DNA from: Pontiella desulfatans
GTDB taxonomy: Bacteria; Verrucomicrobiota; Kiritimatiellia; Kiritimatiellales; Pontiellaceae
DNA length: 64,000 nucleotides
Assembly: GCF_900890425.1 (NCBI RefSeq)
Contig: NZ_CAAHFG010000002.1
Span: 620,001 to 684,000 of the forward strand
Direction: 5' to 3'
Of this stretch, positions 1 through 30,751 are shown piece after piece. Below the pieces are notes generated by a model. It saw only the letters and a list, made by a program, of their open reading frames with translations. It was not told the origin of the DNA and ran no database searches. The translations under genes were made by a program, and so were the position numbers. Positions within the stretch are counted from its first letter, which is position 1; every line of letters starts with the position of its first letter.

Positions 1-1
1 C

Positions 2-2152: not shown

Positions 2153-2172
2153 TTATATTAAGGAGTAGGATT

Positions 2173-4997: not shown

Positions 4998-5081
4998 GGG
5001 AATATCGCGGGTTTTCCGTGTCCGAATTGCAGGATCATTAAAATAGTGAAATTCCCGGTTGACAGATCGGGTCAAGAGGCG

Positions 5082-5099
5082 TAGTAAAAATAGTTACTA
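5082..5099. promoter_or_regulatory. Putative LacI-type operator 1
   Basis: TAGTAA-AAATAG-TTACTA, a perfect 6-bp inverted repeat with a 6-bp spacer. It begins 17 bases after TTGACA (5059-5064), so it would cover the -10 region. It shares its last two bases with the next dyad. Repeated elsewhere in the locus, including directly before the lacI-type gene. Confidence 0.6.
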
Positions 5100-5115
5100 G
5101 TAAAAGATGTTACCA
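5098..5115. promoter_or_regulatory. Putative LacI-type operator 2
   Basis: TAGTAA-AAGATG-TTACCA, one mismatch between arms. It overlaps operator 1 by two bases, giving two dyads on one stretch, 16 bases centre to centre. Confidence 0.55.
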
Positions 5116-5178
5116 GGGTTTTGCCGGAGGGTGGGGCCGGGATTGGGAAATAGATGGTTTGACACGTAACCGTGGTTA

Positions 5179-5196
5179 TAGTAAATACTGTTACTC
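5179..5196. promoter_or_regulatory. Putative LacI-type operator 3
   Basis: TAGTAA-ATACTG-TTACTC, five of six arm positions paired. It follows TTGACA (5159-5164) by 14 bases and lies about 45 bases before the ATG at 5241, a standard repression position. Confidence 0.6.
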
Positions 5197-5240
5197 TGCA
5201 TTAAGTGGGGTGGCTTAATTCAACGCATAGGAGATGCATA

Positions 5241-8138
5241 ATGAAGAAGAGGCGATTCATAGCAACAGGTGTGATGCTCATATCGGGACTGGCCATGACG
5301 GCGAGTGCCGCTGTGATACTGGAGAACGACTTTGATACGGACACGACCGGCTTCACGCTGAGCGGAACCGATGCGACCCTTACCAATAACACGATAAGGC
5401 TCGACGATAATTCGATAACCGAGAACGCGCAAATGGTGTCCGACACCTTCAACCCGAATGCAGCGTCCAACGTGGTGGTGTCCTTCGATTACTATTCGAA
5501 CGCCCAGGGCGGTCAAAGCCATGCGTTTGAGCTGAGCGGTGATGGCAGCACCCAGGGCATCCTCCTGCACGTTGCCGGCGGTAGCAGTCAAATCCAAAAC
5601 CGGGAGTCGAGTGCATTTGTGAACCTTACACCGAACTTCACGATGCAGGCTGCCACCTGGTACAATTTTAAGTTCACCTTGCCGCCGGAAACTACGTCAG
5701 GCAAAACCTTCGACCTGCAGGTCACGCAGCAGGGGCAACCCGCCGGAAACATCCTGGATGTCACCGACCAGCCGTTCCGGAACGAGATCGGCACCTACGA
5801 TTTCACGAAATGGTTCTTCAATACAGCCGTTAGCGCGAGTGGTGGTGACTACATCATCGACAATGTGGTGATCTCGAATCAGTTTTTCGATGCGCCTCCT
5901 CCTCCCGATATCGATCCGGGCGATCTGGTGAAATACACCTTCAGTGCGTCCAACACGGTGGCGGATGCCACCGCGAGCAACGTTTCGGCAAGTGCTTTCA
6001 CTGCGGATTCGGGGTATGTCAATACGACGGTGGGAGGCGGAGCTTCCACCGGCGGCTTCCCGCTTTGGCAGACTTCTGCCGATCCCACAACGGCCAGCAT
6101 TACGCTTACGCCGGACGACGGCTATTCTCTGGGTTGCAGCGCCCTGCTGTTCGGGCTGAGGATGGACGGCACAGCGGGCGGCAGGCCTTACAAAGTCGAG
6201 TTGACCTCCAGCGCCACCGGCACCAACGTTCTATTCGAAGTGTACAACAAGGACTGGGCGACTGAAGATGGCATCACCAGTGGCGGGAATGTATGGGCTC
6301 TCGTCAACAACCAGTTCAAAGACATCACGGTTGACCTGACCCAGTGGCCCGAGCTGCTGACCAATTCAACGGTAACGTTTACCTGGGACTACTTTGAGAA
6401 GTATGCAGCGGCCAACGGCCAGTGGCGGATGGACGATATTTATGTGGAAGGATCGGCGTTCGAGTACACGGGCCCCGGCATTCTGGCTCCATACTCTACC
6501 AACATTACCTCCATCGTGGATGAGGATTTCAACGGCACGCCGGGAACCCTGCTCATCCTGGAGGAATTCGACACGCTTCCCACGAACAGCTGGACGTTTA
6601 ACGATAACGGCGCGGTCGCAACCAATACCGGACCCAATGCGGTCGACCCGTTCGGTACGCCGGGCGCCAGCCTGAACCTGGATATGACGGCCGCAGGCGT
6701 GCCAGACGCCAACGTTGATATCCAGCTTTCCGGCGACGACGCGGATCAGCCGCTGAAGATTGAATTCAGCTTCAATCCGGCGGACTTTTCGGCGGCGCAT
6801 GAATTTGCCCTGCGCAACAGCGGCGGAACTCCGGGCATCCAGATGGATCTGGCCAACTCAAGTGGTCAGGTTCGCTACCACAACGGAACCGCGATGACCC
6901 CCTTAGGCGTCACCCTTGACGAGGGCTCCTGGTACCAGTTCAAGATCGTGACTTCCCCCGAATCAAACGCGTCGGGCGACACCTTCGACCTGACCATCCT
7001 GAATACGAACAACGTCACGGTATTCAGCACCAACGGGCTGTCGTTCCGCAACGATCTTGCGGACTATGACCATGCGCGCTTCTATTTTAATACGGGTTCG
7101 CCGACGGATGACGGGCAGTTCTACATCGACAATGTCTATATCCGTGCCGTACCCGATGCCGAGACCGACAGTGGCGCGGTTTTTTCCTATGGTTCTGAGG
7201 TGACCGGTCCGGAATCTGCTTTCTTCCCGACCGTTGGTGGGGGTCTGAGTGCTGAACTCAAGAACAGTGAAATCAACTCCAACCCCGAGGTGGATGTCTT
7301 CTTCACGGTGGACGATCCCAATCGGCCGCTGCACATCGTGTTCGACTACCGTCCCGAAACCGCGGGAACCAAGAATTTCGGCTTCCGCCTGGTGGATAAT
7401 AACCAGCTCGATGACACGTCTTCCTTCGATACACAGGGCATGGATGGTATGCGCATGATGCAGGGAGCGACCGTGGGGCTTCAAAACAAGCCCACGCCTA
7501 CTGATTCATGGGTTCAGTTGGGCATTACGCCGGTTGAGGGCCAATGGCATACGGTTGAAATCATTGCCTCGCCGGAGAGTGCGGCCACCAAGACCTTTGA
7601 CATTACGGTATGGGATACGTCCGGTGCGGTGATCGGCAGCGCGACAAACCAGCCGTTCCGTTCGGACATCACCAACTACACGTCGTTCGGATTCTTCTTC
7701 AATCGCACGAAGGAGTCGTCTGACGATAAGGCGTTCTACATCGACAACCTGAAAATCGGAAATGGGATTTCTCAGCTCACGGCGTATGAGCAGTGGGCTG
7801 AAGACAATGGGTTGACCAGCGGAAACGATGATGAAACCGACAATCCTGATGGCGACGTGCTCAACAACAAGGGTGAGTATGTGTTCGGCGGAAGCCCGAC
7901 CAATGGTGCGGATGTAGGTGTTGGGCAGGAATTCGATGCTGGAGGCGCATATGTTTACACGGTGCGTAACGATACTGATCTAACGGTTCAGATCCTCACT
8001 CGCGCCAATCTGATGTTCGGCGAATGGGCCACCAATTCGGCCGCGGTGATCTCCGTGGATGACGGAGAGTTGGGCACCTACACCAATGCGGTAGGCATCG
8101 GAGGAAATCAGCTGTTCTACAAACTGCTTGTGGAATAG
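5241..8138 (+). CDS. Secreted multi-module putative carbohydrate-binding protein
   Basis: 965 aa, no catalytic domain recognised. The start is the ATG at 5241 behind AGGAGA; an in-frame upstream start at 5205 is in the operator region and unlikely. Signal peptide at 1-23 (LISGLAMTASA). The body is built from jelly-roll/LamG-like modules of about 190 residues. Module A begins near 25 (LENDFDTDTTGF to DYIIDNVVIS). A different module B spans about 225-415 (VKYTFSASN to RMDDIYVEG). Two more A-like modules follow, each ending in FYIDNv. The last 110 residues carry NPDGDVLNNKGEYVFGGSPTNG, a probable calcium-binding segment also found at the ends of the next two proteins. It is first in its operon and followed by a hairpin, so it may be the most abundant product. 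Role inferred: binding of the glycan substrate at the surface or outside the cell. Confidence 0.8.
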   Translation: MKKRRFIATGVMLISGLAMTASAAVILENDFDTDTTGFTLSGTDATLTNNTIRLDDNSITENAQMVSDTFNPNAASNVVVSFDYYSNAQGGQSHAFELSGDGSTQGILLHVAGGSSQIQNRESSAFVNLTPNFTMQAATWYNFKFTLPPETTSGKTFDLQVTQQGQPAGNILDVTDQPFRNEIGTYDFTKWFFNTAVSASGGDYIIDNVVISNQFFDAPPPPDIDPGDLVKYTFSASNTVADATASNVSASAFTADSGYVNTTVGGGASTGGFPLWQTSADPTTASITLTPDDGYSLGCSALLFGLRMDGTAGGRPYKVELTSSATGTNVLFEVYNKDWATEDGITSGGNVWALVNNQFKDITVDLTQWPELLTNSTVTFTWDYFEKYAAANGQWRMDDIYVEGSAFEYTGPGILAPYSTNITSIVDEDFNGTPGTLLILEEFDTLPTNSWTFNDNGAVATNTGPNAVDPFGTPGASLNLDMTAAGVPDANVDIQLSGDDADQPLKIEFSFNPADFSAAHEFALRNSGGTPGIQMDLANSSGQVRYHNGTAMTPLGVTLDEGSWYQFKIVTSPESNASGDTFDLTILNTNNVTVFSTNGLSFRNDLADYDHARFYFNTGSPTDDGQFYIDNVYIRAVPDAETDSGAVFSYGSEVTGPESAFFPTVGGGLSAELKNSEINSNPEVDVFFTVDDPNRPLHIVFDYRPETAGTKNFGFRLVDNNQLDDTSSFDTQGMDGMRMMQGATVGLQNKPTPTDSWVQLGITPVEGQWHTVEIIASPESAATKTFDITVWDTSGAVIGSATNQPFRSDITNYTSFGFFFNRTKESSDDKAFYIDNLKIGNGISQLTAYEQWAEDNGLTSGNDDETDNPDGDVLNNKGEYVFGGSPTNGADVGVGQEFDAGGAYVYTVRNDTDLTVQILTRANLMFGEWATNSAAVISVDDGELGTYTNAVGIGGNQLFYKLLVE

Positions 8139-8181
8139 AACGAGTGGCTGGGTTCACACACTAACAATATGAATGATGCGG

Positions 8182-8205
8182 CTGCCCCGGAGTTTTTCGG
8201 GGCAG
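8182..8205 (+). terminator. Intra-operon hairpin without T-tract
   Basis: CTGCCCCG and CGGGGCAG form an 8-bp perfect stem around an 8-base loop, 44 bases after the stop of the binding-module gene and 41 before the next start. The following bases are TCCCATTTG, so it is a poor intrinsic terminator. It more likely stabilises the upstream mRNA end or attenuates read-through. Confidence 0.5.
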
Positions 8206-8245
8206 TCCCATTTGTTGAAAACCTGCAAACTCATTAGGAAGCTTT

Positions 8246-11200
8246 ATGATGAAAGCCCGGCGTTCAGGAATAAGTGCAGCATTCATTCTGGCCGTTGCCT
8301 GCCTACCCGTTTTCGGAGCCGTGTATTATGTATCGCCGACGGGCGACGACAACAATTTCGGAACGATAACGGAGCCATGGCGCACGATTCAGAATGCGGC
8401 GGATTGGATGGTGGCCGGGGACACCTGCATGATCCGTGGCGGTACGTACCGCGAAACCGTGATTCCGGCGAGCTCTGGAACGGCAGGCAACCCGATCACA
8501 TACGCAGCTTACAATGGCGAGACCGTCATCATTCATGGATGCGAACCGGTGTTGGGGCCATGGACGCTCGGCGTAGCGGGGGATCAACCGCTGGACATTG
8601 ATGAAAATTTTGATGGAGCCCTGCCGACGGCCGGCTGGAACTATGCCGCCGGCACCGGTGTCGTGGTGGCCAACAACGGGCCGGAATCGGCCTTTACCGC
8701 CCATCCGGGCGGCGGCAGCCTGGCACTGGACCTGACGGCAACACAGATGCCCAAGGTTTATAAGACGATTAATGTTAACGGCACGGCTTCGACGCAGCCC
8801 CTGCACATGGAGTTTGATATGAATTCCACGGTGGGCGGGCCCGAGCAGACCTTCCAGCTTTATGGGGCCGATGGTCAGGGGATCCTGTTTACCGTCAAGA
8901 GCGGAACGGTAAAATACGATGACGGATCAGGGCGAGTGACCATCGGGAGCGTCAGCCTGAACCAGTGGTATCACTATCACTTTGTCGTTTCTCCTGAAAC
9001 GAACGGCGTGAACGACACCATGGATGTAACGATCACAGACACCAATGGAACGGCGGTGGTTACGGCGACGAATCTTCCGTTCCGCAACGATATCAGCTCC
9101 TACGACGAGCTGAGATGGCTCCACAATGTCGCTGCGCCCCAGAACGGCGGAAATTTCTATGTGGACAATGTGCGGGTGTGGACCCCCGACGTTGTCGTGC
9201 CCCAGATCCTGGCGGACTACGGGTTTGATTCAGGCACCGGCGCGGCGGATGCCGCCGATCCCAACCTGACGGCAGGCGATGTTACCAAGAGTACCGGTTC
9301 GTTTGTCACGACAGACAACACCAACAAGCTAAGCTCGGACGGGCTGCCCCAGTGGAAAAAATACGGTGCGGCTGCGACGCTTGACTTTACGCTGACCCCG
9401 GATGCGGATTTCCGTGCGAGCTGCCGCGCCCTGTCCTTCGAAATTCAGATGGATGCCGGTGCGGCGGACGGATCGAAAAACCGGAAGATGGAACTGACAT
9501 CGAGTGCGACCGGAACCAATATTCTATATGCGGTGTACAATACGCACTATGCCGCGGATCTCGGGGTCACGGGGGAGCAGGCCCTGGGTTCAGGCTTCGA
9601 GACCAAAACGGTGGATCTAAGCGGCTGGAGCGAACTGAAGAGCGCGACGAACCCGGTAACCTTTACCTTCACGTTCAGTGGGCCGGGAGCCGACGACCTC
9701 AATATGCGGCTGGATGCGATTAAGCTGGAGGGGCCCGTCGACCAGGTGAATGTCTATGCGGCCGAAGTTGAAATGGCCCTGGGACATGAAAACCAGATTT
9801 TTGTGAATGGAAGCCACATGGCCTGGGAGGCGCGCTGGCCCAACGTCGGTACGGATTCGCTGGACGGGCTGCTGGAGTTTCAGATGGCCACCATGGAATC
9901 CGGCACCACCAGCAACAGCATTGTGGACAGCTCCATTCCGGACTATGACTGGACGGGCGGACAGGCCTGGGTGTCGAGCTATAAGCGCTGGTCCGCCTGG
10001 TCCGGGGAGATCACTGGTTTTGGTTCGGGCGAAATATCCCTGGTCAACAATGCCGATTCAAAAGGCAATATGATCTGTAAGGAAGACGGCAAGTTTTATC
10101 TTTTCGGTGTCCGGGATGCGCTGGACAGCGCCAACGAGTGGTACTACGACGGAACATACCTGCACCTGTGGGCACCGGGCGGCGGGGTGCCGACCGGTGT
10201 TGAGGTGAAAAAGCGCCTGTACGGATTCGATCTGTCCGGCCGGGATTTCATTCGTCTGGAGGGCTTGGATTTTTTTGCGACGGGGATCAATACCTCCGGG
10301 GAATCGGACGCGCTGGAGTTTGATCGCCTGACCCTCAAGCACATCTACCACTCGAACAATGCGGAGAAAGGGGCGAATTCCCAGAGTTCCACCGGCCTGC
10401 TGCTTTACGGCACCAACCACCGGCTGGAAAACAGCGAGATCGCCTACAGCTCTGGAACCGGCGTCTATCTGGGCGGGTCGGGACATTGGATCGTCAACAA
10501 CTACATCCATGACCACGACTATATCGGGAGCTATGCCTCGCCTCTCGTGTTAAAGGGATCCGATTTTGTCATCAGCCACAACACCATCAGCCGGGCGGGG
10601 CGTCAGTGCATCAATCTCGGGGAAATGTATGGCAGCCTGATTCAGTACAACGATGTTTCCTATGCGGGCTACCTGACCTGGGATCTGGGGCTGGTTTACG
10701 GCAACAGTATCGCCGGGGGAGATGCCGAAGTCCGCTACAACTGGTTCCATCACAATCTGGCAACGGGCCATGGAAACGGTATTTATTACGACCATAACTG
10801 CAAGAACATCCTGACCCATCACAACGCGGTGTGGGGGGTCAGCAAAAAGGCCATTGCGCATAACCAGTATGCGAACTACCTGCTGTATTTTAACAACACG
10901 GGATCAACCAGTGGTGACACCGCGATCGGTTCAGCATGGAACGCCGGTCAGCAGCGGGATCTGCATGGATGCCGCTACATCAATAATGTCTTTAACGCAG
11001 GCACGGATTTTGACGGGAACGGGTACACCTTCGAGAACAATTTCATAAACTATTCCCAGATCATATCGAATCGATATCTGACGCCGGCTACCGCTCCCGT
11101 TGATGCGGCTGTTCCGCTGGAAGGCATCACGGATAGCTGGGAAGGAGCGGGACCCGATGCGGGTGCCTATGAAATCGGCGGCACGGATTGGACGCCGGGG

Positions 11201-12733
11201 CATGATTTCGCCTCCCCGCCGCTGATGATCGACACGACCCGCTCGCTGGTGAAGCACCGCAACATGCTGATAAACGGATCGTTCGAGGCCGGGACGCTCA
11301 CCCCGTGGCAATCCATGGGCGGAGCGGCATCCCTGCTGAATGAAAACAACAAAAGTCAGTGGGTCGCGGATGGCAATACGCTGGGCGGGGCGTACAGCGT
11401 GGAACTGGGCGAGGGGGCCTGCGGCGTTTCGCAGGTAATCACCAACCTCGAGCCGTATACCGAATATGAATTCATGGGTAAGTTCCGGGTGGAGCCCGGC
11501 GAGTCGGCTTATCTGGGCGTTCGCAATCACGGCAATGCGGAAACCAACGGAACTGTCATCACGGATACCGTTACCGGTGCCGTTCCCATCCGTGCCGATG
11601 CCACGCCCTACGAATGGGAACAGACAACACTCACATTTACCACCGGCCCCACGAACACCAGTGCTGAAGTGTATGCCTGGAAAAACTCGACCGGCTCCGG
11701 CGGCGTCTATTTCGAAGATGCCGGGGTGCAATTCGTTCAAACATTGGAAACGATCATTGTGGACGAGGACTTTGCAGGCGGCCTGGGCGATTGGGCCGTC
11801 ACCGACGATGTGGCCACGAATAGCTCGGCACAATCGCCGTTCTCGAACGGCGGGGCCGACACCGTTGGAGCGCTCTTCATGGACGACACCAACACTTTAA
11901 GCCGTATTGAGCGGAACTTTTCCGTTGCGGACAGCGCGCCCCTGTATATCCAGTTCGACTATCGCTACACGGGGGCCGTGGCCAATCCGGGCTTCCAGCT
12001 TAAACAGGGGAGCACCGTGGGGATCAATGTTCATCTGACGTCCGGAATCGGAAAGGTTCAGTATAAGGACGGCGCAACATGGATGACGCTCGGTACGGCA
12101 CCCCATCCGGATACGTGGTATCGCTTTACGCTGAGCATCCTGCCCGCCGAAACAGCGGACGACCGATTCGATATGAGGATCCAGGGCCTGGATTATGGAT
12201 CGATTGATATCACTCACACCAACCTCGGCTTCCAGAATGATCTGACGGATTTCGGCACGCTGCGTTTCCACTACAACACGGGTGACGCTAACGTTGGTGG
12301 AACCTACCACATCGACAACGTGCTGGTCACCCGATCGCCGGTGAATTTAAATTTCGATGTGCTGCCGGAGGAGGTACCCTTTGAGACGTTCATATCGGAT
12401 CATGGTCTGTCCGGCGACCCCATCGCGGACTTCGACAGCGACGGCCTGCTCGACTACGGTGAGTATGTGTTCGGCGGCAATCCGACCAACGGCTGGGTGG
12501 ATGCGCAGAACCCGGAGTTTGATGCCGCTGACGGAGACTACATATTCTCCCTGATCGGCGACAGCAACGTGGTTGCCTATGTCGTCTCCAGTACGAACCT
12601 GCTGGATGGGGCGTGGGAAACCAACGAAACCGTCAGCGTGACGGCGAACGACGGAATGATGAAGAGCTACACGAACCACAACGGCACATCCGAACCACAA
12701 CGGTTCATTAAGCTGGAACTGGAGATGCCCTGA
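8246..12733 (+). CDS. Giant secreted parallel beta-helix protein with inserted binding modules
   Basis: 1495 aa. Probable glycan lyase or hydrolase of a right-handed beta-helix type; family not assigned. AGGAAG at 8236-8241 precedes ATG 8246 (a second ATG follows at 8249). Signal peptide, then VYYVSPTGDDNN, the usual first turn of DUF1565/PL6-like helices. The helix is interrupted at about 116-500 by an A-type and a B-type jelly-roll module like those of the preceding gene. It resumes at MALGHENQIFVNG with clear coils (IYDHN and HHN turns) to about 930. A CBM4/9-like domain (MLINGSFEAG), another A module and the GEYVFGGNPTNG tail follow. The protein at 18085 has the same helix without the insert. 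Its last 325 residues closely match those of the next gene. Confidence 0.8.
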   Translation: MMKARRSGISAAFILAVACLPVFGAVYYVSPTGDDNNFGTITEPWRTIQNAADWMVAGDTCMIRGGTYRETVIPASSGTAGNPITYAAYNGETVIIHGCEPVLGPWTLGVAGDQPLDIDENFDGALPTAGWNYAAGTGVVVANNGPESAFTAHPGGGSLALDLTATQMPKVYKTINVNGTASTQPLHMEFDMNSTVGGPEQTFQLYGADGQGILFTVKSGTVKYDDGSGRVTIGSVSLNQWYHYHFVVSPETNGVNDTMDVTITDTNGTAVVTATNLPFRNDISSYDELRWLHNVAAPQNGGNFYVDNVRVWTPDVVVPQILADYGFDSGTGAADAADPNLTAGDVTKSTGSFVTTDNTNKLSSDGLPQWKKYGAAATLDFTLTPDADFRASCRALSFEIQMDAGAADGSKNRKMELTSSATGTNILYAVYNTHYAADLGVTGEQALGSGFETKTVDLSGWSELKSATNPVTFTFTFSGPGADDLNMRLDAIKLEGPVDQVNVYAAEVEMALGHENQIFVNGSHMAWEARWPNVGTDSLDGLLEFQMATMESGTTSNSIVDSSIPDYDWTGGQAWVSSYKRWSAWSGEITGFGSGEISLVNNADSKGNMICKEDGKFYLFGVRDALDSANEWYYDGTYLHLWAPGGGVPTGVEVKKRLYGFDLSGRDFIRLEGLDFFATGINTSGESDALEFDRLTLKHIYHSNNAEKGANSQSSTGLLLYGTNHRLENSEIAYSSGTGVYLGGSGHWIVNNYIHDHDYIGSYASPLVLKGSDFVISHNTISRAGRQCINLGEMYGSLIQYNDVSYAGYLTWDLGLVYGNSIAGGDAEVRYNWFHHNLATGHGNGIYYDHNCKNILTHHNAVWGVSKKAIAHNQYANYLLYFNNTGSTSGDTAIGSAWNAGQQRDLHGCRYINNVFNAGTDFDGNGYTFENNFINYSQIISNRYLTPATAPVDAAVPLEGITDSWEGAGPDAGAYEIGGTDWTPGHDFASPPLMIDTTRSLVKHRNMLINGSFEAGTLTPWQSMGGAASLLNENNKSQWVADGNTLGGAYSVELGEGACGVSQVITNLEPYTEYEFMGKFRVEPGESAYLGVRNHGNAETNGTVITDTVTGAVPIRADATPYEWEQTTLTFTTGPTNTSAEVYAWKNSTGSGGVYFEDAGVQFVQTLETIIVDEDFAGGLGDWAVTDDVATNSSAQSPFSNGGADTVGALFMDDTNTLSRIERNFSVADSAPLYIQFDYRYTGAVANPGFQLKQGSTVGINVHLTSGIGKVQYKDGATWMTLGTAPHPDTWYRFTLSILPAETADDRFDMRIQGLDYGSIDITHTNLGFQNDLTDFGTLRFHYNTGDANVGGTYHIDNVLVTRSPVNLNFDVLPEEVPFETFISDHGLSGDPIADFDSDGLLDYGEYVFGGNPTNGWVDAQNPEFDAADGDYIFSLIGDSNVVAYVVSSTNLLDGAWETNETVSVTANDGMMKSYTNHNGTSEPQRFIKLELEMP

Positions 12734-12746
12734 TCCCGGGGTATTC

Positions 12747-15275
12747 ATGAAGGCAATCAAAATCATATCTTCAGCGATTATCACATGGACGATGGTTAAT
12801 GCTACAGTCCTTGCTAATCCTGTGGTGGATGTGGAGCTTCTGTTTGGCCATCACCACCGCTTGAACAGGAATGTGTACGGAGCGAATGCCTATAACATTT
12901 CGCGACCGTACTACAAGGATAACGGCGGGTTTGTCGACAAGTACAACGCCCTTGGCAAGCCGGCGATCCGTTATCCCGGGGGGACGGCTGCAAACTATCT
13001 GGATCAGGCCACAGGCTGGCATGAAACGTGGCCGGGGGCCACCACCAAAGATACCGACCGGGCCAACAGCTTCAACAACGGTTTAATCAACAACGGTAAA
13101 TCCTCGGGACATGATTACATGCCTTTTGCGAACTTCCTTGTGCAGACTGATGCCGCCGCGACCTACGTCTATAACATCACCACCATGACCGATGCGCAAA
13201 ACCGCACTGTGCTGGAAAATATCGCGGCCACGGGGGCGGAAATCGACTGTTTTGAAATCGGCAACGAACTGTATTACGGCCAGTACGCCGCCGCTGTTCC
13301 GGATGTCCACGATTATATCAGCAAGGCCCAGTCGGCGTCCGTGGTAATCCGGGATATATTTCCAAACGCCAAAATCGGCGTCATCATTCCAAGCCATCTT
13401 TTCACGAATGAAAGCTTCCTGCCCGATGGGGCTGTGAATGACGGTGACCGGCAGGAGCTGTGGTATTCGGAGCTTCAGGATGAAAACTTTTTCGATGCCG
13501 TTGTCATCCATACCTATGCCTCCGTTGGGATGGATGGCAGTGTGACGGCCGATAACTTCCTGAGCTATGAGGACGCGTATGATTACAGCATCTCGCACAT
13601 CGACGCCAAATTCAACGAAGCCTTTGATCGCATCAAGACAGACTTCCCCGGCAAAGAGGTTTTTGTTACCGAGTACCATGTGGGCGGATTCTCCGGGGAT
13701 GTGCGGCAATTCCGTCTCCGGTATTCCTATCTGGGGGCGTTTGTCACCGGCCAGTTCATGATGAAGATGTTTGGGCAGGATCACATCACACTCAGTTCCT
13801 GGCACTCCATGGCGCAATGGTTTACCTACTCGGCGCCGGGAAGCAACCTGCTGCCCGATCCGTATGCCTTTGGCACGACGCTTAACTATGATTTTTTTGG
13901 TCTGTTTAAGGAGCCGGTGCAGAACTCGGATTATTTCACACCTGTCCGGATTTCCGGTGCCAGCACCTACAACGGCGTGGGAGGTCTGGGTTCCGGCAGC
14001 CATGCCGAAGTGGAAGGCGGAAATTTCGTCAACGCGGAAGCCGGCGAGGGTTATCTCGTTCTTTTCAACAAGCAGACGACCCCGTACGATGTCGATCTCT
14101 CTCTGTTCGAGTTGGCCAATGGCGTTGTGATTCAGGAAATAAATTCCGTAATGCCCGATGATTCGCTTCCACTGGTGCAGGCCGTGGAGTCGGAAGCCAC
14201 ATTTACTCAGAATACGGTTTTATCCCCGATGCCGGCCACCCTCACCCTCATGCCCTATTCGATGCATATCATCCGGTATAACGGGGGAGGGCTTACCCAT
14301 GTTCTGGTCAGCGAGGACTTCGAGGGCGGGCTTGGCGATTGGATGGTGACCGACGACGTGACAATCGACAGCTCCGCGCAGTCTCCGGTTGATAACGCCG
14401 GAGCGGATACGCAAGGAGTCCTTTTCTATGACGATGCCAACACCGCAAGCCAGATGACGCGGGATCTTCTGGTGGATGGTGCCTTGCCCCTGACGATTCA
14501 GTTCGATTATCTCTACACGGGATCCGTCACCAATCCGGGGGTGCAGCTCAGGCAGGGAGGTGCCACTGGTATTAATGTGCACATGACTTCGGGGGACGGG
14601 AAGGTTGCTTACAAGGATGGATCAAGTTGGATCAAGCCCGGCACGGAGCTGAATCCGAATACCTGGTACCGCTTCACGTTGAATGTCCAGCCTGCCGATA
14701 CGGCGGACGACCGGTTTGACCTGCGTATCCAAAGTCTGGAAAGTGCAGATCTCGATGCCACCTATGACAACCTTGGATTCCAGAACGATCTGGCCGATTT
14801 TGACACCCTGCGCTTCCACTACAACACCGGTGTATCTACGGTAGGCGGCGAATACCGGATTGACAATATACAGGTCTTTACATCGGAAAATCTGGGGTTG
14901 AACATCTATCCGGGCGGGGCTAGGTACAACTCCTTTGTATTTGATCATGGGCTGTCCGGCGACCCCGCCGCGGACTTCGATAACGATGGTCTTCTCGATT
15001 ACGGCGAATATGTGTTCGGCGGCAACCCGACCAATGGCTGGAACGATGGGGCCAGGGCGTCGTTCCATGGCGGCAACTACATCTTCTCCCTGATCGGCGA
15101 CAGCAATGTGACCGCGCATGTGGCCTCCAGTACGAACCTGCTGGATGGGGCGTGGGAAACCAACGAAACCGTCCATGTGGCGGCGAACGATGGATTGATG
15201 AAGGCCTACACCAACGACATCGGCACATCCGAATCCCAACGGTTCATCCAATTGGAGCTGGCAGCGCCTGAGTGA
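12747..15275 (+). CDS. Secreted clan GH-A glycoside hydrolase with binding module and C-terminal tail
   Basis: 842 aa with a signal peptide (about 1-23). The N-terminal 500 residues look like a (beta/alpha)8 glycosidase. RYPGGTAANYLD at 75-86 resembles the substrate loop of GH51-like arabinofuranosidases. Glu174 in EIGNELYY is the expected acid/base and Glu309 in VFVTEYHVGG the expected nucleophile. A beta-sandwich follows (about 400-510), then an A-type jelly-roll module and the GEYVFGGNPTNG tail. Exact GH family and substrate are not clear; GH51, GH39 or GH30-like families are all possible. It lies 13 bases after the beta-helix gene and is co-transcribed with it. Its 3' third is nearly a copy of that gene's 3' end. 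Confidence 0.8.
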   Translation: MKAIKIISSAIITWTMVNATVLANPVVDVELLFGHHHRLNRNVYGANAYNISRPYYKDNGGFVDKYNALGKPAIRYPGGTAANYLDQATGWHETWPGATTKDTDRANSFNNGLINNGKSSGHDYMPFANFLVQTDAAATYVYNITTMTDAQNRTVLENIAATGAEIDCFEIGNELYYGQYAAAVPDVHDYISKAQSASVVIRDIFPNAKIGVIIPSHLFTNESFLPDGAVNDGDRQELWYSELQDENFFDAVVIHTYASVGMDGSVTADNFLSYEDAYDYSISHIDAKFNEAFDRIKTDFPGKEVFVTEYHVGGFSGDVRQFRLRYSYLGAFVTGQFMMKMFGQDHITLSSWHSMAQWFTYSAPGSNLLPDPYAFGTTLNYDFFGLFKEPVQNSDYFTPVRISGASTYNGVGGLGSGSHAEVEGGNFVNAEAGEGYLVLFNKQTTPYDVDLSLFELANGVVIQEINSVMPDDSLPLVQAVESEATFTQNTVLSPMPATLTLMPYSMHIIRYNGGGLTHVLVSEDFEGGLGDWMVTDDVTIDSSAQSPVDNAGADTQGVLFYDDANTASQMTRDLLVDGALPLTIQFDYLYTGSVTNPGVQLRQGGATGINVHMTSGDGKVAYKDGSSWIKPGTELNPNTWYRFTLNVQPADTADDRFDLRIQSLESADLDATYDNLGFQNDLADFDTLRFHYNTGVSTVGGEYRIDNIQVFTSENLGLNIYPGGARYNSFVFDHGLSGDPAADFDNDGLLDYGEYVFGGNPTNGWNDGARASFHGGNYIFSLIGDSNVTAHVASSTNLLDGAWETNETVHVAANDGLMKAYTNDIGTSESQRFIQLELAAPE

Positions 15276-15454
15276 GATAGGGATGCCGCTGCTTTGTCTG
15301 CGACATTTGGCTTATAGAGCCAACGCTACAACGTTGTCGTGCGGGCTTAGTGAGATGAAACGCTTTGTCCAATGGTTTAATGCTACGGCACAGGGGGCGC
15401 AGGATGAACTTTTTTTATGCAACCATTCCTGCGCTTGTATTTCAATGTGCGGGA
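15276..15454. other. Spacer before the lacI-type gene
   Basis: About 180 bases without a convincing gene. A short open frame crosses it but has no recognisable content. I see no strong terminator hairpin, so read-through from the operon into the regulator gene is possible. Confidence 0.4.
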
Positions 15455-15471
15455 TAGTAAAACATTTACTA
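15455..15471. promoter_or_regulatory. Putative autoregulatory operator at the lacI start codon
   Basis: TAGTAAA-ACA-TTTACTA, a perfect 7-bp inverted repeat ending two bases before the ATG at 15473. It is one base shorter in the centre than the other copies. No Shine-Dalgarno is visible in front of this ATG because the dyad occupies that place. Binding here would block the gene's own expression. Confidence 0.6.
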
Positions 15472-15472
15472 T

Positions 15473-16498
15473 ATGAAAAAACCTACTGTAGTTGAGATTG
15501 CTAAACAGGCCGGCGTGTCTCCGACGCTCGTCAGTTTTGTGGTGAATAATAATGAAAAGCATCTGGCGCGCATGAACGACGGAACGATTGAGCGCGTCAG
15601 GAAGGTAGCCGCCGAACTGGGCTATCACCGGAACGAACTTTTTGCGGCTGCGCGGCGGGGTCGGAGCCGGTTTGTTGCGCTGCTGGCCCGCAATGTGACC
15701 GTGGAATACTATGCCCGTGTGCTTGATCATATCATGGTCGCGACCGACCGGTTTGACTATGCGCAGAAACTGGTGACGCTGCGGGAAAGCGATCAGATTC
15801 CCCGTGCGGTTACCCGCATTCAGGAATATCGGATCTGCGGCGGGATTTTCCTCGGGGTGCGCAACGATATTCTGAAGCAGTTCTGGAAACAGTTCGGGGA
15901 CGCCTCGTTCCCATCCCTGCTGGTGAACTGCGACCCGACCCAGGTTAAGCAGGGCGTTTTGGTTTCGGTCGACGACAAGGCGGCCATGCGCCAGGCGATC
16001 GACTACCTGAAGGGGCTGGGGCATCGGCGTATCGCCTATGCCGGCCCAACGAAAAACGAATATTCACACATTGCCCGGCGGAAGGCATTTGATGCGGCCT
16101 GTGCCGATGGCGGTATTTCAGCCAGCAGTTCCATTGCCCTTCCATGGGACATGGATGATCCGCAAGAGGAGTTGGTGGCGGCGTTGAAGGCTAAACGGCG
16201 TCCAACCGCCATCGTGGCCTATTCTGATCCGGCAGCGTTGACCGTTCAGCGGGTGTCGACCGCGCTTGGGCTGCATATTCCCGCCGATCTATCCGTGGTC
16301 GGCTTCGACGATGTATCTTTTGCGGAGCGCCTGACCCCGGCTTTGACCACATTCCGTCAGGAGCTGGCGGTCATCCGGGATAAGTATGTTCCTGAATACC
16401 TCGAAAGTATTGAAAGCGACCAACCGCTGAACCGTCGTAAAAAACGTACGATTCCAACGCATTTGATCGAACGCGAATCCACGGGGCCGGTGCGGTAA
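15473..16498 (+). CDS. LacI/GalR family transcriptional regulator
   Basis: 341 aa DNA-binding repressor or activator expected to respond to a sugar from the locus substrate. The N-terminal helix-turn-helix reads PTVVEIAKQAGVSPTLVSFV, with a hinge following to about residue 60. The rest is a periplasmic-binding-protein-like sugar-sensing domain with GLGHRRIAYAG and VVGFDDVSFAERLTP, typical of the family. The start is fixed by the helix-turn-helix. It sits between the two halves of the carbohydrate locus. Dyads before this gene and three nearby transcription units suggest local control including its own. The ligand cannot be read from the sequence. Confidence 0.95.
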   Translation: MKKPTVVEIAKQAGVSPTLVSFVVNNNEKHLARMNDGTIERVRKVAAELGYHRNELFAAARRGRSRFVALLARNVTVEYYARVLDHIMVATDRFDYAQKLVTLRESDQIPRAVTRIQEYRICGGIFLGVRNDILKQFWKQFGDASFPSLLVNCDPTQVKQGVLVSVDDKAAMRQAIDYLKGLGHRRIAYAGPTKNEYSHIARRKAFDAACADGGISASSSIALPWDMDDPQEELVAALKAKRRPTAIVAYSDPAALTVQRVSTALGLHIPADLSVVGFDDVSFAERLTPALTTFRQELAVIRDKYVPEYLESIESDQPLNRRKKRTIPTHLIERESTGPVR

Positions 16499-16556
16499 AC
16501 AAAACAGGACGATCTCCTTGAACTTATAACGCATAAAGCGCTTGCTTTGGTGTTGC

Positions 16557-16574
16557 TGGTAACATATGTTACTA
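16557..16574. promoter_or_regulatory. Putative LacI-type operator before sulfatase gene
   Basis: TGGTAA-CATATG-TTACTA, five of six arm positions paired and a palindromic centre. A candidate promoter TTGCTT (16542-16547), 17-base spacer, TATGTT (16565-16570) overlaps it, so binding would block RNA polymerase. Confidence 0.6.
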
Positions 16575-16664
16575 AAAGCTGTGAGGCGATATGTTAAGGG
16601 TGTTGTTCTGGATTGATGACCCCCGTGCTGGAAGAAAACCGCGTAAGAAGATATGAGGAATAGA

Positions 16665-18050
16665 ATGAGAAATTGCGTACTCTACATGGCTTGGGCCTTT
16701 CTGGTTGGAACGGCTTTGGGGACGGCACCGAATATAATCCTGATTATGGCGGATGATGTTTCGGCAAAGGATTTCAGTCTGTATGGAAGCAAGGAGATCC
16801 AGACGCCGAGCCTGGAGAAAATGGCGGCCGAGGGGGTGTATTTCCAGACGGCCTGGTCCACCCCAATCTGCAGCCCTTCGCGGGCGATGATCATGACGGG
16901 TAAATATGCCAACAAGACCAAGGCCTATCATAATAACATCAAGCTCAGCTGGAATCTCGCCCGGGATCACCTGACCATCGGCGAGATGATGAAGCAGGCC
17001 GGCTACAAAACCGCCTTTGCCGGCAAAGTGCAGATGGAGGGGAATTTTCGCGCGGATTACGGATTCGATGAGGCGTTCGAGTGGGCGGACTGGGATGGTT
17101 TTGACGGGCCGGTGGAGCGCTGGGACAAAGGAAAGCTTCCCAAGGGCGGGTGGTATGACCGTTCGGCGCGTTATTGGCACCCCTCCTTAACCATCAACGG
17201 GGCCGGGTTGAAAACCAAGACCAATGACTACGGGCCGGATGTTCTGGTGGGCCATATCAACCGGTTTATTGAGGCGAATAAATCAGAGCCGTTCTTTATC
17301 TATTATCCGATGCTGCTGCCCCATAAGAGTTGGGATTTCGAGCGCAATAAGGGGGGGTATCTTCCGACGCCTGCGCTCGATGGGAAAGGTCGGCGGATCG
17401 ATGAAAAATCGGAGCCGACGCTGAAAGCCAATGTGGAGTATATGGATTATCTGGTCGGGGAGATTCGAAAACAGGTCGAACGTTCCGACATTGCGGACAA
17501 CACAATCATCATCTACACCTCCGATAATGGAACCGCCGGATATGGCAAAGGGATTTTTACGAAAGAGCGTGGCACACGAGTTCCGTTTGTGGTCTGGGGC
17601 CCAGGTCATGTAAAACCGATCGGCGCATCGCCGGAGCTGATTGATTTCAGTGATGTGCTGCCGACGCTTGCGGAGTGGGCCGGATACACGATCGACCCGG
17701 AAGAGGGCGTTGACGGAGTCAGCTTTGCTCCGATTCTTCAAGGCGACACCAGTACGGCCCGTGAGTGGATCGGAGCCTATTTCGGGCCGTTCCGGCAAAT
17801 GCGTACGAAAGAGTGGTTGCTGGACGGTCAGGACAGGTTATTCGATTGCAGGGCCGGGCGGGATGATGCTTCCCTGAAAAACGTTAGTGGCAGTAACGAT
17901 CCCGATGTGATGGCCGCAAAGGAAAAACTGCAGGCATTGAGAGCGCTGCATCTTCCGCTGGATGACTTCCGTGAAAATGCGGAGATTATCGAGCTTTGGA
18001 AGGCATATCAGAAGAACGGCGGACCGTTCATAAAAAGCTTTGTGCCCTGA
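16665..18050 (+). CDS. Secreted S1 family sulfatase (CSPSR)
   Basis: 461 aa from the ATG at 16665, chosen because GAGGA at 16655-16659 has good spacing; an ATG at 16653 in the same frame would add four residues. Signal peptide MRNCVLYMAWAFLVGTALG. Asp34-Asp35 in MADDV and Cys69 in C-S-P-S-R followed by MIMTGKY mark the formylglycine active site. YTSDNGTAG is the second metal-binding segment. It is first gene of a unit with its own operator and probably co-transcribed with the beta-helix gene 34 bases downstream. The end reads FIKSFVP with no extra domain. Confidence 0.94.
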   Translation: MRNCVLYMAWAFLVGTALGTAPNIILIMADDVSAKDFSLYGSKEIQTPSLEKMAAEGVYFQTAWSTPICSPSRAMIMTGKYANKTKAYHNNIKLSWNLARDHLTIGEMMKQAGYKTAFAGKVQMEGNFRADYGFDEAFEWADWDGFDGPVERWDKGKLPKGGWYDRSARYWHPSLTINGAGLKTKTNDYGPDVLVGHINRFIEANKSEPFFIYYPMLLPHKSWDFERNKGGYLPTPALDGKGRRIDEKSEPTLKANVEYMDYLVGEIRKQVERSDIADNTIIIYTSDNGTAGYGKGIFTKERGTRVPFVVWGPGHVKPIGASPELIDFSDVLPTLAEWAGYTIDPEEGVDGVSFAPILQGDTSTAREWIGAYFGPFRQMRTKEWLLDGQDRLFDCRAGRDDASLKNVSGSNDPDVMAAKEKLQALRALHLPLDDFRENAEIIELWKAYQKNGGPFIKSFVP

Positions 18051-18084
18051 TGTTCAGATAAAGCTTCATTAAGGAGTGAGAAAA

Positions 18085-20370
18085 TTGAAAAGAAGATTTT
18101 TGCTGATTATTCTATTTATCTATCCGGCTATCCATAGTTTCGGGGCTTCCTATTATGTTTCAACCAGCGGAAGTGATGCAAACGACGGGACATCCGGCCG
18201 ACCATTCCGGAGTATCGGTAAGGCTGCCGCGGTTTTGAAGCCGGGCGACATCTGCCATATCGATGACGGTCTTTATGCTGAAACGGTCCAGCCTGCGCGC
18301 TCAGGGCGGCCGGATGCACCCATCGTCTTCAAAAAAATGAATGGAAACGGTCGGGTGGTGATTACCGGTCTGGATTCTGTATCGGCGAATCGCTGGCAAA
18401 AAGGCCCCGCCGGCCTATATGCCGCGCGGTGTGAAATGAATCTTGGGCACGAGAATCAAGTGTTCCTGGGCGGAAGGATGCTGCTTGAGGCCCGTTGGCC
18501 CAATTCCGGCGACGTGCTGCTGGAGCCGGTGTTGGCTACAATGAAAAAGGGAACCACGAAAACCCTCATCGTAGATTCCAGTCTTCCCGGTTTTGACCTC
18601 GCCGGTGCGAAGGCCTGGATCCATGCCCCGAAATACTGGTCCGACTGGACGACTTCCATCACCGGAAACCCCGAGAAAGGGCGGCTGGAAATCGTTGATT
18701 CCGCACCCTTTCATGAGCCCAGTCGGCATGTTGCGGTCGAGGGCGCAACGTATTTTATCTTTGGCTTTCTGGATGCACTCGATTCGGACGGGGAGTGGTT
18801 TTATGATGAAAAGAAAAAAACACTTTATGTGTACAGAGAAAACGGGAAGCTGCCGAAGCAGAATTATTACATTAAAACCCGTATGACGGCTTTTGATCTG
18901 CGAGCCAGATCTCATGTAAAACTTGAGGGCATCGAGATTCTGGGGGCGACGATCGAAACAAGCGCCAAGTCCTCGCACCTTATTTTTGATAGCATGAGGA
19001 TACAATATCCGTATTTTTCCTCCTTGGCGGCAGGCAGCGGTGCCCAGGCTGACAAGGGGGTTCGCCTGCTCGGAAGCAACTGCATCCTGAAAAACAGCGA
19101 GGTGGCCTACAGTTCGGGAACCGGAGTGGCCCTCTATGGTGAAAATAACCAGGTGCTCAACTGTTACATCCATGACCATGACTTTATCGGAACCTATGCC
19201 AGTTGTGTTCAGTTGGGCGGGAAGGGGAATGTCATCAGCCACTCTACCCTTACGCGCAGTGGTCGCAGCGTCATTGATTACGGCGCAATGTATCAGTCGC
19301 TCGTCCAGAACTGCGAGTTGAGTTATGCAGGAATGTTGACCGGCGATCTCGGACTGACCTACGGCAATGTGATTGAGGGCGGGAATTCCGAGATCCGATA
19401 CAACGTGCTTCGGCACAACGTGGCTCATCACCACAGCACCGGCCTGTATTATGACCATGGAACCCAGAATATTATTTCGCACCACAATATCGTTTACGGT
19501 GTAGAACTGTCCGCGTTCCATCTAAACCACTATGCTTCCTTTCATCTCATATATAACAATACGTTCATTGCCGAGAAGTTCGGGTTCCGGAATATCTGGG
19601 GAAACAAATATGCCCCGGAGCTTAACGGGGTTCGGATCGTCAACAACGTGTTCAGCCAAACCGCCGAAACAGCGGCCCCCGACTATTTCTGGAGCAACAA
19701 TATTACCGATTATGAGGGTTTCGATCCGAAGGAGCCCTTCAGGATCGACCCGGATCTGATGGAGCGGGGGCTTTATCTTGAGGGGATCTCGCGGGGCGGT
19801 CCGCAGAAACGACCGGGCATCGGCGCGATTGAATCGGAAAACGGGGTCTTCCGCGTCGGGCATGATTTCAGGAATCCGCCCGAGATGGACACAACCCGCA
19901 GTCGGCCCAGGCACCGGAACCTTATTATCAATTCCGCATTTGAGCACGAAGACCATTTGGATCCATGGACATCGGTTGGTGATGTTCGGAAAAACAAGCA
20001 TAAGCCCAAGCTCCAGATCGACGAAGATATCGGCACCGGGCGGATGGGAGCCCATTCGGTTGAGCTGGCTGGAAATCGGAGCGAAATCCGGCAGGTCGTG
20101 ACGGATCTTGAGCCGGACTGCACCTATCAATTCAGCGGTTTCCTCCGTGTGGATAAAGGGGAGCGGGCTGTTCTCGGGGTTCGTTTTCCGGACGGGCAGG
20201 AGTTTACCTCTCCCGATGTTACGTTTGGCGCACCCGCCTGGCGTCGTGTGAACCTTTCCTTTTCCTCTCAGGAAGGTGCCGGGGATGTCGTTGTATTTGT
20301 AAGGCGCCTAAGCCAGGGTTCCGGCAACGTCTATTTCGATGATGCCGGACTCGTGCTGACCGGCCGGTAA
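18085..20370 (+). CDS. Secreted parallel beta-helix protein (short paralogue of 8246 product)
   Basis: 761 aa from the TTG at 18085, preferred over a GTG at 18076 because the GTG lies inside the ribosome binding site AAGGAG (18071-18076). Signal peptide KRRFLLIILFIYPAIHSFG, then ASYYVSTSGSDANDG. The helix matches the 8246 product throughout (GHENQVFLGG, EARWPN, IHDHDFIGTYAS, YYDHG, HHNIVYGV), but the A and B modules are missing and the first coils join directly. A CBM4/9-like domain (NLIINSAFEHEDHLDPW) ends the protein. There is no GEYVFGG tail. Likely a polysaccharide lyase or hydrolase of unassigned family acting with the sulfatase encoded just upstream. Confidence 0.82.
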   Translation: MKRRFLLIILFIYPAIHSFGASYYVSTSGSDANDGTSGRPFRSIGKAAAVLKPGDICHIDDGLYAETVQPARSGRPDAPIVFKKMNGNGRVVITGLDSVSANRWQKGPAGLYAARCEMNLGHENQVFLGGRMLLEARWPNSGDVLLEPVLATMKKGTTKTLIVDSSLPGFDLAGAKAWIHAPKYWSDWTTSITGNPEKGRLEIVDSAPFHEPSRHVAVEGATYFIFGFLDALDSDGEWFYDEKKKTLYVYRENGKLPKQNYYIKTRMTAFDLRARSHVKLEGIEILGATIETSAKSSHLIFDSMRIQYPYFSSLAAGSGAQADKGVRLLGSNCILKNSEVAYSSGTGVALYGENNQVLNCYIHDHDFIGTYASCVQLGGKGNVISHSTLTRSGRSVIDYGAMYQSLVQNCELSYAGMLTGDLGLTYGNVIEGGNSEIRYNVLRHNVAHHHSTGLYYDHGTQNIISHHNIVYGVELSAFHLNHYASFHLIYNNTFIAEKFGFRNIWGNKYAPELNGVRIVNNVFSQTAETAAPDYFWSNNITDYEGFDPKEPFRIDPDLMERGLYLEGISRGGPQKRPGIGAIESENGVFRVGHDFRNPPEMDTTRSRPRHRNLIINSAFEHEDHLDPWTSVGDVRKNKHKPKLQIDEDIGTGRMGAHSVELAGNRSEIRQVVTDLEPDCTYQFSGFLRVDKGERAVLGVRFPDGQEFTSPDVTFGAPAWRRVNLSFSSQEGAGDVVVFVRRLSQGSGNVYFDDAGLVLTGR

Positions 20371-20620
20371 TGGTGCTGAACGTGGGCGTTTTCATCAAGG
20401 CGGCCTGCTGAACATGGATGAATCCGCATGAAATAGATTGACAAAGCACGGGGGTAGTAACATTGTTTACCAATATTTGTCAGAGGAAGGCGTTGGAGCT
20501 GCGGGAAAGCCGTGGTGCCTTGGTTGGGCAGTAGTTGCCGAGTAATGTTAACGTTTTGTGCCAGCATGTGGCTGAGCGATCGTAAGGGAAGAAATTAAAA
20601 ACAGGAATTCCGCTGATTTT
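20371..20620. promoter_or_regulatory. Control region before the MFS/GH141-like/fucosidase operon
   Basis: 250 bases without a gene. TTGACA at 20438-20443 with a weak -10 (CATTGT, 20461-20466, 17-base spacer) lies over the dyad at 20455-20472. About 145 bases of leader follow before the ATG at 20621. No clear terminator for the upstream gene is visible. Confidence 0.5.
20455..20472. promoter_or_regulatory. Putative LacI-type operator before the transporter operon
   Basis: TAGTAA-CATTGT-TTACCA, same architecture as the copies at 5098 and 16557. It starts 11 bases after TTGACA, overlapping the putative -10 element. Confidence 0.6.
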
Positions 20621-21922
20621 ATGAATGAGAAAAAACGACACCCGCTTTTCTGGATGCCGACGCTCTATTTTGCGATGGGCGTTCCGCTGAACATCGTCGT
20701 GGTCGTGGCGGCGATCATGTATAAGAACCTCGGTCTTTCCAATACGGAGATCGGGCTCTACACGGGGGCGATGTATCTGCCGTGGGTGCTGAAACCGCTG
20801 TGGTCTCCGTTTATCGACATGTATAGAACGAAGAAGTTTTTCGTACTGCTTACGGAAATCATCATGGCAGTCGGCCTGGGCTGCATGGCGCTGGCTCTTC
20901 CGCTCGAAGGCTGGCTACCGGCAACCATCGCCCTGTTCTGGGTGATCGGCTTTCTTTCGGCAACACAGGATATTGCCGCGGACGGGGTCTACATCAATTC
21001 CATGACGGCAAAGATGCAGGCCAAATATATCGGGGCGCAGGGCATCTGCTGGTATGGGGGAAAAATCCTGGCGACGGGGCTGCTGGTGTCGGTGACCGGC
21101 TATCTGCATTCCGAGGAAAAAGGGCTGGGCCTCAGTTGGGCGCATGCCTGGATGATTGTGATGGGGGTGCTGGGTGCAACGATGCTGATCCTCAGCATCT
21201 GGCACCGCTTTATGCTGCCGACCGGTGGCGAGGCCGTTCAGCTGGAGGATTCCAAAAGCGGTCTGAAGCATGTGGTTCATGAATTCGGCGATGTATTTTC
21301 CAGCTATTTCAAAAAGAAAAATATCTGGGTCATGCTGCTCTTCGTTCTGTTCTACCGCCTTGCGGAAGGACTGCTCGAAAAGATGGGGCCGCTTTTCCTG
21401 ATCGATACCGTGGAGGCGGGTGGTCTCGGGCTGGACAATGTGGCGGTCGGGAACATTATGGGATCCTTCGGTTCGGTGGCCTTTATGCTCGGCGCGCTGC
21501 TGGGCGGGCTCATTGCATCCAGATTCGGGCTGAAGCGTTCGCTGATGTTTCTATGTGTCATGCTGAATGTGCCGGATCTGGCCTTTGTTTATCTCGGTTA
21601 TGCGCTGCCCACCAGTGTACCGTGGATCACAACGGTCATTACGCTTGAAATGTTCGGCTACGGCATCGGCTCGGTTTCGCTGATGCTCTACATGATGCAG
21701 CAGATCGCACCTGGAAAATACAAAACTGCACACTACGCGATCTCTACGGGATTCATGATGCTGTGTATGATGCTGACCGGCATGATCAGCGGCAAGCTGC
21801 AGGAAGCGGTCGGGTACCAGTGGTTTTTTGTCATCGTCTGCATTGCCACCATTCCGTCGTTTATTATCACCTGGTTTGCACCGTTCCATGTGGATCACAG
21901 TAAAGAAGAAAGCGAACAGTAG
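20621..21922 (+). CDS. MFS transporter, PAT/AmpG-like
   Basis: 433 aa inner-membrane protein with about 12 hydrophobic segments. The motif SATQDIAADGVYI resembles the conserved Asp-containing segment of AmpG/PAT transporters. In this locus it probably imports mono- or oligosaccharides released by the secreted enzymes (inference from context), as no SusC/D or ABC system is nearby. It is first gene of the operon controlled by the 20455 dyad. GGA at 20604-20606 is a distant ribosome binding site, so the start is only moderately supported. The next gene begins 10 bases after the stop. Confidence 0.88.
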   Translation: MNEKKRHPLFWMPTLYFAMGVPLNIVVVVAAIMYKNLGLSNTEIGLYTGAMYLPWVLKPLWSPFIDMYRTKKFFVLLTEIIMAVGLGCMALALPLEGWLPATIALFWVIGFLSATQDIAADGVYINSMTAKMQAKYIGAQGICWYGGKILATGLLVSVTGYLHSEEKGLGLSWAHAWMIVMGVLGATMLILSIWHRFMLPTGGEAVQLEDSKSGLKHVVHEFGDVFSSYFKKKNIWVMLLFVLFYRLAEGLLEKMGPLFLIDTVEAGGLGLDNVAVGNIMGSFGSVAFMLGALLGGLIASRFGLKRSLMFLCVMLNVPDLAFVYLGYALPTSVPWITTVITLEMFGYGIGSVSLMLYMMQQIAPGKYKTAHYAISTGFMMLCMMLTGMISGKLQEAVGYQWFFVIVCIATIPSFIITWFAPFHVDHSKEESEQ

Positions 21923-21932
21923 AGAAATTATT

Positions 21933-24149: not shown

Positions 24150-24152
24150 CGC

Positions 24153-27115: not shown

Positions 27116-27116
27116 A

Positions 27117-30747: not shown

Positions 30748-30751
30748 AAAT

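What the first reader, a model, noticed from the sequence alone, without database searches (positions are those of the whole stretch)
5082..20472. A six-site TAGTAA-N6-TTACYA operator family tying the locus to its LacI regulator
Dyads of one design occur at 5082, 5098, 5179, 15455, 16557 and 20455 and I found none elsewhere in the window. They lie before the binding-module operon, the lacI-type gene itself (touching its start codon), a sulfatase/beta-helix unit and the transporter/GH141-like/fucosidase operon. Most overlap a promoter-like TTGACA or TATGTT. This defines a coherent local regulon whose operator lacks the central CG typical of many LacI sites.
Basis: partly seen in the sequence, partly recalled or inferred. 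Interest (0 to 1): 0.75.

Follow-up and report, generated by a model that had tools for sequence, protein, structure and literature searches.

The report
Self-contained LacI regulon on genomic island
Seven near-identical DNA switches sit at the promoters of a block of genes for digesting sulfated, probably fucose-containing seaweed sugars and just before their own LacI-type repressor gene; they occur nowhere else at this quality in the 8.66-million-base genome, and the block lies between two copies of a tRNA-gene end, as if it had been inserted together with its own control system.

Summary
Exact TRGTAA-N6-TTACYA occurs four times in the whole 8.66-Mb genome, all in this window (5082, 5098, 16557, 20455); 0.18 were expected. 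5179 has one mismatch. 15455 has a 5-base spacer, not 6. All seven fall in the locus's 1.4 kb of intergenic DNA; four have a perfect TTGACA 15-23 bp upstream, with the predicted -10 inside the operator. Best reading: a local, autoregulated LacI-family repressor regulon of 15 genes in five transcription units. The regulator's sequence fits the operator: Phe22 (not Arg) goes with T at -6, and loss of the hinge Ala53/Leu56 pair (Phe/Ala) goes with the missing central CG. New: the regulon fills a 31.7-kb segment bracketed by tRNA-Ala(GGC) 3'-end repeats that occur only three times in the genome (the third is the tRNA itself, beside an integrase-like gene). This would explain why the sites are local and why no close orthologue was found. 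Binding, repression and inducer are untested. Ordinary kind, well supported.

The parts
1..4997 (+). Operon A: GH3 glycosidase (its start at C2:619582 and its operator O1 at C2:619446-619463 lie left of the window), sulfatase 2149-3546, sulfatase 3543-4997
   Evidence: Pfam; operator O1 and TTGACA box; overlapping genes
5059..5064 (+). -35 box TTGACA of the first promoter of operon B
5082..5099 (.). Operator O2, TAGTAAAAATAGTTACTA, exact
5098..5115 (.). Operator O3, TAGTAAAAGATGTTACCA, exact, shares two bases with O2
5159..5164 (+). -35 box TTGACA of the second promoter of operon B
5179..5196 (.). Operator O4, TAGTAAATACTGTTACTC, one mismatch
5241..15275 (+). Operon B: 5241-8138 (weak SO2946-like C-terminal domain), 8246-12733 (right-handed beta-helix plus CBM_4_9), 12747-15275 (no family found)
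15455..15471 (.). Operator O5, TAGTAAAACATTTACTA, N5 spacer, one base before the lacI ATG
15473..16498 (+). LacI-family regulator, 341 aa; P17, T18, F22 in the recognition helix; Phe and Ala at hinge positions 53 and 56 of LacI numbering (F57, A60 of this protein)
16557..16574 (.). Operator O6, TGGTAACATATGTTACTA, exact on the minus strand reading
16653..20370 (+). Operon C: sulfatase 16653-18050, beta-helix protein 18076-20370
20438..20443 (+). -35 box TTGACA of operon D
20455..20472 (.). Operator O7, TAGTAACATTGTTTACCA, exact
20621..30603 (+). Operon D: MFS transporter, beta-helix protein, two sulfatases, alpha-L-fucosidase (GH29), sulfatase
30719..30892 (+). Right border repeat (partner at C2:619040-619212): terminator-like hairpin plus the tRNA-Ala 3'-end 17-mer TGGTGGAGGATAACGGG at 30752-30768
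31282..34270 (.). Integration module: primase-like gene 31282-32934 (+) and integrase-like gene within 32945-34270 (-)
34273..34348 (-). Intact tRNA-Ala(GGC), the third genomic copy of the 17-mer

Best explanation
A local, autoregulated LacI-family repressor regulon that makes up the whole cargo of an island at tRNA-Ala(GGC). Without inducer, a dimer of the 15473-16498 product binds seven 17-18 bp operators (half-sites TRGTAA / TTACYA, six or five bases apart) that overlap the core promoters of four enzyme operons and lie just before its own start codon, and so blocks RNA polymerase. When a breakdown product of a sulfated, probably fucose-containing polysaccharide enters the cell it binds the sensor domain, the dimer leaves, and 15 genes (GH3, GH29, six sulfatases, beta-helix proteins, transporter, regulator and others) are switched on together. 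Half-sites are read in the usual LacI-family register; the centre need not be CG because the hinge has lost its DNA-wedging leucine. Shown: site positions, uniqueness, promoter overlap, protein features, border repeats. Inferred: binding, repression, inducer, past mobility.
For: Genome-wide uniqueness; unbiased motif ranking; seventh site found out of sample at a TTGACA promoter of the adjoining operon; TTGACA plus operator three times in the window and in none of 100 shuffles; operator directly before lacI. The regulator has F22, and A56/F53 in the hinge where 43 other sequences have L/M/I/V/F and A/G/V/I; published rules link these changes to T at -6 and no central CG (PMC2329647). A homologue with a normal hinge (L064) has the same half-site and spacing with a central CG. 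Autoregulation is usual for local LacI regulons (PMC4052901). Border repeats.
Against: No binding or expression data. The lacI site has a different spacer, and its promoter boxes and those of O6 are weak. No orthologous regulon exists in the genomes searched to confirm conservation. G+C does not single out the island, and the empty site was not examined.
Confidence: 0.82

Rival explanations
1. The operators are real but are bound mainly by another regulator of the cell (a paralogous LacI protein or another dimeric factor), and the local LacI protein has other targets or only modulates.
For: The genome holds at least 14 further proteins with similarity to the regulator; one with a GntR-type DNA-binding domain has GTAAAAATATTTAC just before its start.
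Against: A regulator used elsewhere should have sites elsewhere; apart from this locus the core motif is at chance level. One site sits directly before lacI, and its DNA-contact residues fit the motif.
Confidence: 0.1
2. The protein activates rather than represses, or does both, from these sites.
For: Some LacI-family members also activate (own knowledge, for example Cra).
Against: The predicted -10 hexamers lie inside or next to the operators, a repressing position.
Confidence: 0.06
3. The sites are chance matches or relics of one copied promoter segment.
For: The motif was chosen after seeing the sites; matches with three mismatches are only mildly more common than in shuffled sequence (28 against 19).
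Confidence: 0.02

Closest known systems
Local, autoregulated LacI-family regulons of carbohydrate use (Ravcheev et al. 2014, PMC4052901)
   Same: Regulator gene inside the locus with a site before itself; 18-bp even palindrome; sites close upstream of genes for one sugar pathway.
   Different: 1173 of 1303 regulators in that study have a central CG; here there is none. One site is odd (17 bp), which that study finds only for about 4% of regulators. The term Verrucomicrobia was not found in that paper.
EbgR-like LacI subfamily (LacR, GalR, RafR; Francke et al. 2008, PMC2329647)
   Same: Longer loop before helix 3, no hinge Ala/Leu pair, no central CG; the lacI site is odd-length with a single central C.
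   Different: EbgR-like operators are compact, TTTAGTAAA or TTTACTAAA; six of seven sites here are an even 18-bp palindrome; overall similarity to EbgR is low (38.7 bits, against 135.6 for an RbsR model).
RbsR and MalI operators (PMC2329647)
   Same: Half-site GTAA...TTAC in the same register, T at -6, regulators without Arg at the position of LacI R22.
   Different: Those operators keep the central CG (GTAAAACGTTTTAC).
Genomic islands inserted at tRNA genes
   Same: Direct repeats of a tRNA 3' end on both sides, integrase-like gene next to the intact tRNA.
   Different: The cargo segment contains only one regulon and nothing else; the repeats are old (72% identical).

Membership tests
LacI/GalR family of regulators | LacI-type HTH followed by a periplasmic-binding-protein-like sensor domain | tested here: met
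   Pfam LacI 1.8e-9, Peripla_BP_3 1.6e-29, both above cut-off; model closest to PurR, RbsR, LacI
LacI/GalR family of regulators | Binds its palindromic operator as a dimer and releases it, or binds it, with a ligand | not testable with these tools
   Needs purified protein
CcpA-like LacI regulators with CG-centred operators | Hydrophobic wedge at LacI position 56 and a central CG in the operator | tested here: not met
   Ala at 56, Phe at 53; no CG centre in any of the seven sites
EbgR-like subfamily | Insertion before helix 3 and no hinge Ala/Leu | tested here: met
   but insertions of two to four residues also occur in paralogues with an ordinary hinge
EbgR-like subfamily | Compact odd operator TTTASTAAA and closest similarity to EbgR | tested here: not met
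   Even 18-bp palindrome in six of seven sites; EbgR model scores far below RbsR
Local autoregulated LacI regulon | Sites before the regulator gene and neighbouring operons, none elsewhere | tested here: met
Local autoregulated LacI regulon | Conservation of the sites in orthologous loci | tested here: inconclusive
   No close orthologue found
tRNA-targeted genomic island | Direct repeats of the tRNA 3' end at both borders and an integrase | tested here: met
   17-mer three times in the genome; integrase-like gene, PHROG 2.1e-20, weak in Pfam
tRNA-targeted genomic island | Uninterrupted tRNA-Ala locus in relatives | not tested
   Cargo genes have no close match in the genus genomes searched, but the site itself was not aligned

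The most novel reading that the evidence does not exclude
The regulator shows a different way of reading DNA within the LacI family: the wedge residue has moved or been lost (Phe at position 53, Ala at 56), so the repressor reads two half-sites around an AT-rich centre without CG and tolerates both 17- and 18-bp spacing; because its operators differ from those of the host's paralogues, the island moves as an insulated unit of genes, switches and regulator.
Probability: 0.2. Interest if true: 0.55.

Novelty: new member of a known kind. Interest (0 to 1): 0.42.

Why it matters
The Pontiella papers consulted report over 500 sulfatases and over 400 glycosidase genes, but the word 'regulator' does not occur in the two texts searched. 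This locus gives a sequence-defined regulon with a testable operator and a list of 15 genes that should act on one substrate, which helps to assign enzymes of unknown specificity. It also offers a natural test of how the LacI hinge wedge and the operator centre change together, and a case in which an inserted polysaccharide locus appears to hold its regulator and all its operators within its borders.

Tried and rejected
No relative of the regulator was found in genome contigs and none above about 33% identity in 346 genomes of the class, so direct phylogenetic footprinting of the regulon was not possible. One-mismatch sites elsewhere: four are copies of one repeat (L006, L007, L009, L014; three identical, one variant), and others lie in long open frames or without a perfect TTGACA; treated as chance. 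Two GTAA-N6-TTAC sites near another sensor-domain gene (C1:1248468, C1:1248918) proved to lie beside a GntR-HTH hybrid regulator and inside a sugar-kinase-like gene of a fructose/levan-type locus; rejected as part of this regulon. Membership of the EbgR-like subfamily was rejected on operator form and overall similarity. A palindrome scan before the 42 other LacI homologues gave few clear sites; only L047, L061 and L064 look persuasive, and about 7% of shuffled regions give a hit. Searches failed on input errors and on report format.

Full report
WHAT WAS CHECKED. The window is C2:620001-684000 of an 8,658,305-base, 6-contig genome. Size, relatives and gene content fit Pontiella desulfatans F1 (8.6 Mbp; PMC7356697); this identification is an inference.

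THE SITES. Exact TRGTAA-N6-TTACYA: 5082, 5098, 16557, 20455. One mismatch: 5179. The lacI site at 15455 is TAGTAAAACATTTACTA, with a five-base spacer. In the whole genome the four exact N6 sites and the one exact N5 site are the only exact ones; a first-order Markov model predicts 0.18 of each per genome. At three mismatches the motif is not distinguishable from chance. At one mismatch or fewer there are 17 places with N6 spacing, of which six (five in the window plus C2:619446) lie within 21 kb. The sixth is new: AAGTAAATAATGTTACTA, beginning 15 bp after the start of a perfect TTGACA, before a GH3-sulfatase-sulfatase operon whose start lies outside the window. With the N5 site at lacI the family has seven members, O1 (C2:619446) to O7 (20455).

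NOT A SELECTION EFFECT. When all 256 four-base half-sites and spacers 0-12 are scored in the 1,375 bp of intergenic DNA of the locus, GTAA-N6-TTAC is first with six copies; the next has three and is the same sites in a wider register; 200 shuffles never exceed three. The core GTAA-N6-TTAC has 33 genomic copies; without these six, 27 remain against 26 expected by composition. So there is no sign of distant targets.

PROMOTERS. Perfect TTGACA boxes start 15, 17, 20 and 23 bp before O1, O7, O4 and O2, which places the -10 hexamer, at a spacer of 16-18 bp, inside the operator. TTGACA-N(8-25)-GTAA-N6-TTAC occurs three times in the window and in none of 100 shuffles. O6 has TTGCTT-17-TATGTT; O5 has only weak boxes and ends one base before the lacI ATG, so the lacI message may be nearly leaderless (inference). 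O3 adjoins O2 downstream. This geometry fits repression by blocking polymerase.

THE REGULATOR. The 341 residues carry the LacI HTH and a sugar-binding sensor domain. The model is confident (pLDDT 90.6), with helices at 6-13, 17-24, 28-31 and 36-48 and a hinge helix at 55-62; its nearest solved folds are PurR, RbsR and LacI on DNA. It lacks room for LacI's C-terminal tetramer tail (own knowledge), so looping between O2/O3 and O4 is not expected. Aligned with 42 other homologues and E. coli LacI, it has P17, T18 and F22 in the recognition helix; at hinge positions 53 and 56 it has F and A, where all the others have A/G/V/I and L/M/I/V/F. Francke et al. (PMC2329647) reported that loss of the Arg corresponding to LacI R22 goes with T at -6, and that loss of the hinge Ala/Leu goes with loss of the central CG. 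Numbered from the centre, the 18-bp sites read G-7, T-6, A-5, A-4 and have no central CG: both rules hold. As a contrast, homologue L064 (T18, L22, A53, V56) has GTAACGCGGGTTAC centred 25 bp before its assigned start, the same half-site and spacing but with a central CG; L061 (F22, M56) has TTGACAGGCCTTGATAACTCGTGTTATCAA, again T-A-A at -6 to -4 and a central CG. These two sites are predictions, and with a 7% background rate per region the comparison is suggestive, not proof.

THE ISLAND. Comparing the flanks showed a 174-bp direct repeat, 72% identical, at C2:619040-619212 and window 30719-30892, with no further copy in the genome. It contains a terminator-like hairpin and TGGTGGAGGATAACGGG, the 3' end of tRNA-Ala(GGC) read from the other strand. 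This 17-mer occurs three times in the genome: at the two borders and in the intact tRNA-Ala at window 34273-34348. Between the borders lie 31.7 kb that hold the regulon's 15 genes, 95% coding, all on one strand. The first operator is 356 bp inside the left core and the last gene ends 148 bp before the right one. Between the right border and the tRNA lies a 3.5-kb module with a primase-like gene and an integrase-like gene (PHROG 2.1e-20; the R, H and Y motifs of tyrosine recombinases were read by eye). The regulator and two cargo proteins have no close match in the genus genomes searched. The simplest reading is an integrative element at tRNA-Ala(GGC) with the regulon as cargo, which would explain why the operators occur nowhere else. 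G+C does not single out the segment (0.546, between flanks of 0.520 and 0.593), and the empty site was not examined.

SUBSTRATE. GH3, GH29 alpha-L-fucosidase, six sulfatases and beta-helix proteins point to a sulfated, fucose-containing polysaccharide such as fucoidan, on which Pontiella desulfatans grows (PMC7356697). The inducer is unknown. The transporter resembles AmpG-type MFS proteins below the family cut-off, so import of an oligosaccharide is plausible.

VERDICT. The kind of system is known; the added points are the island borders and the match between regulator and operator.

Noticed in passing
C2:619040-619212 (left of window) and window 30719-30892; tRNA-Ala at 34273-34348: A tRNA-Ala(GGC) 3'-end repeat brackets the regulon; an integrase-like and a primase-like gene lie between the right repeat and the intact tRNA.
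   Followed up: yes
C2:619178, 619192; window 30665, 30679, 30858, 30872: Pairs of TGTACCA 14 bp apart stand near both borders of the island, possibly arm sites of the integrase.
   Followed up: no
C2:610628-613862 (L058 10628-13862, minus strand): Three tyrosine-integrase genes in tandem, a trio of the kind seen in some mobile elements.
   Followed up: no
C2:615313-616881 (L058 15313-16881): A protein joining a caspase-like domain to a sulfatase-modifying-factor (FGE) domain, just left of the island.
   Followed up: no
C1:1247349-1248461 (L094): A regulator with a GntR-type HTH and a LacI-type sensor domain beside a fructose/levan-type locus, with GTAAAAATATTTAC just before its start.
   Followed up: partly
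window 8246-12733 and 18076-20370: The beta-helix proteins of operons B and C are paralogues (42% identity over about 660 residues), one of them embedded in a 1495-aa protein with a CBM_4_9 domain.
   Followed up: no
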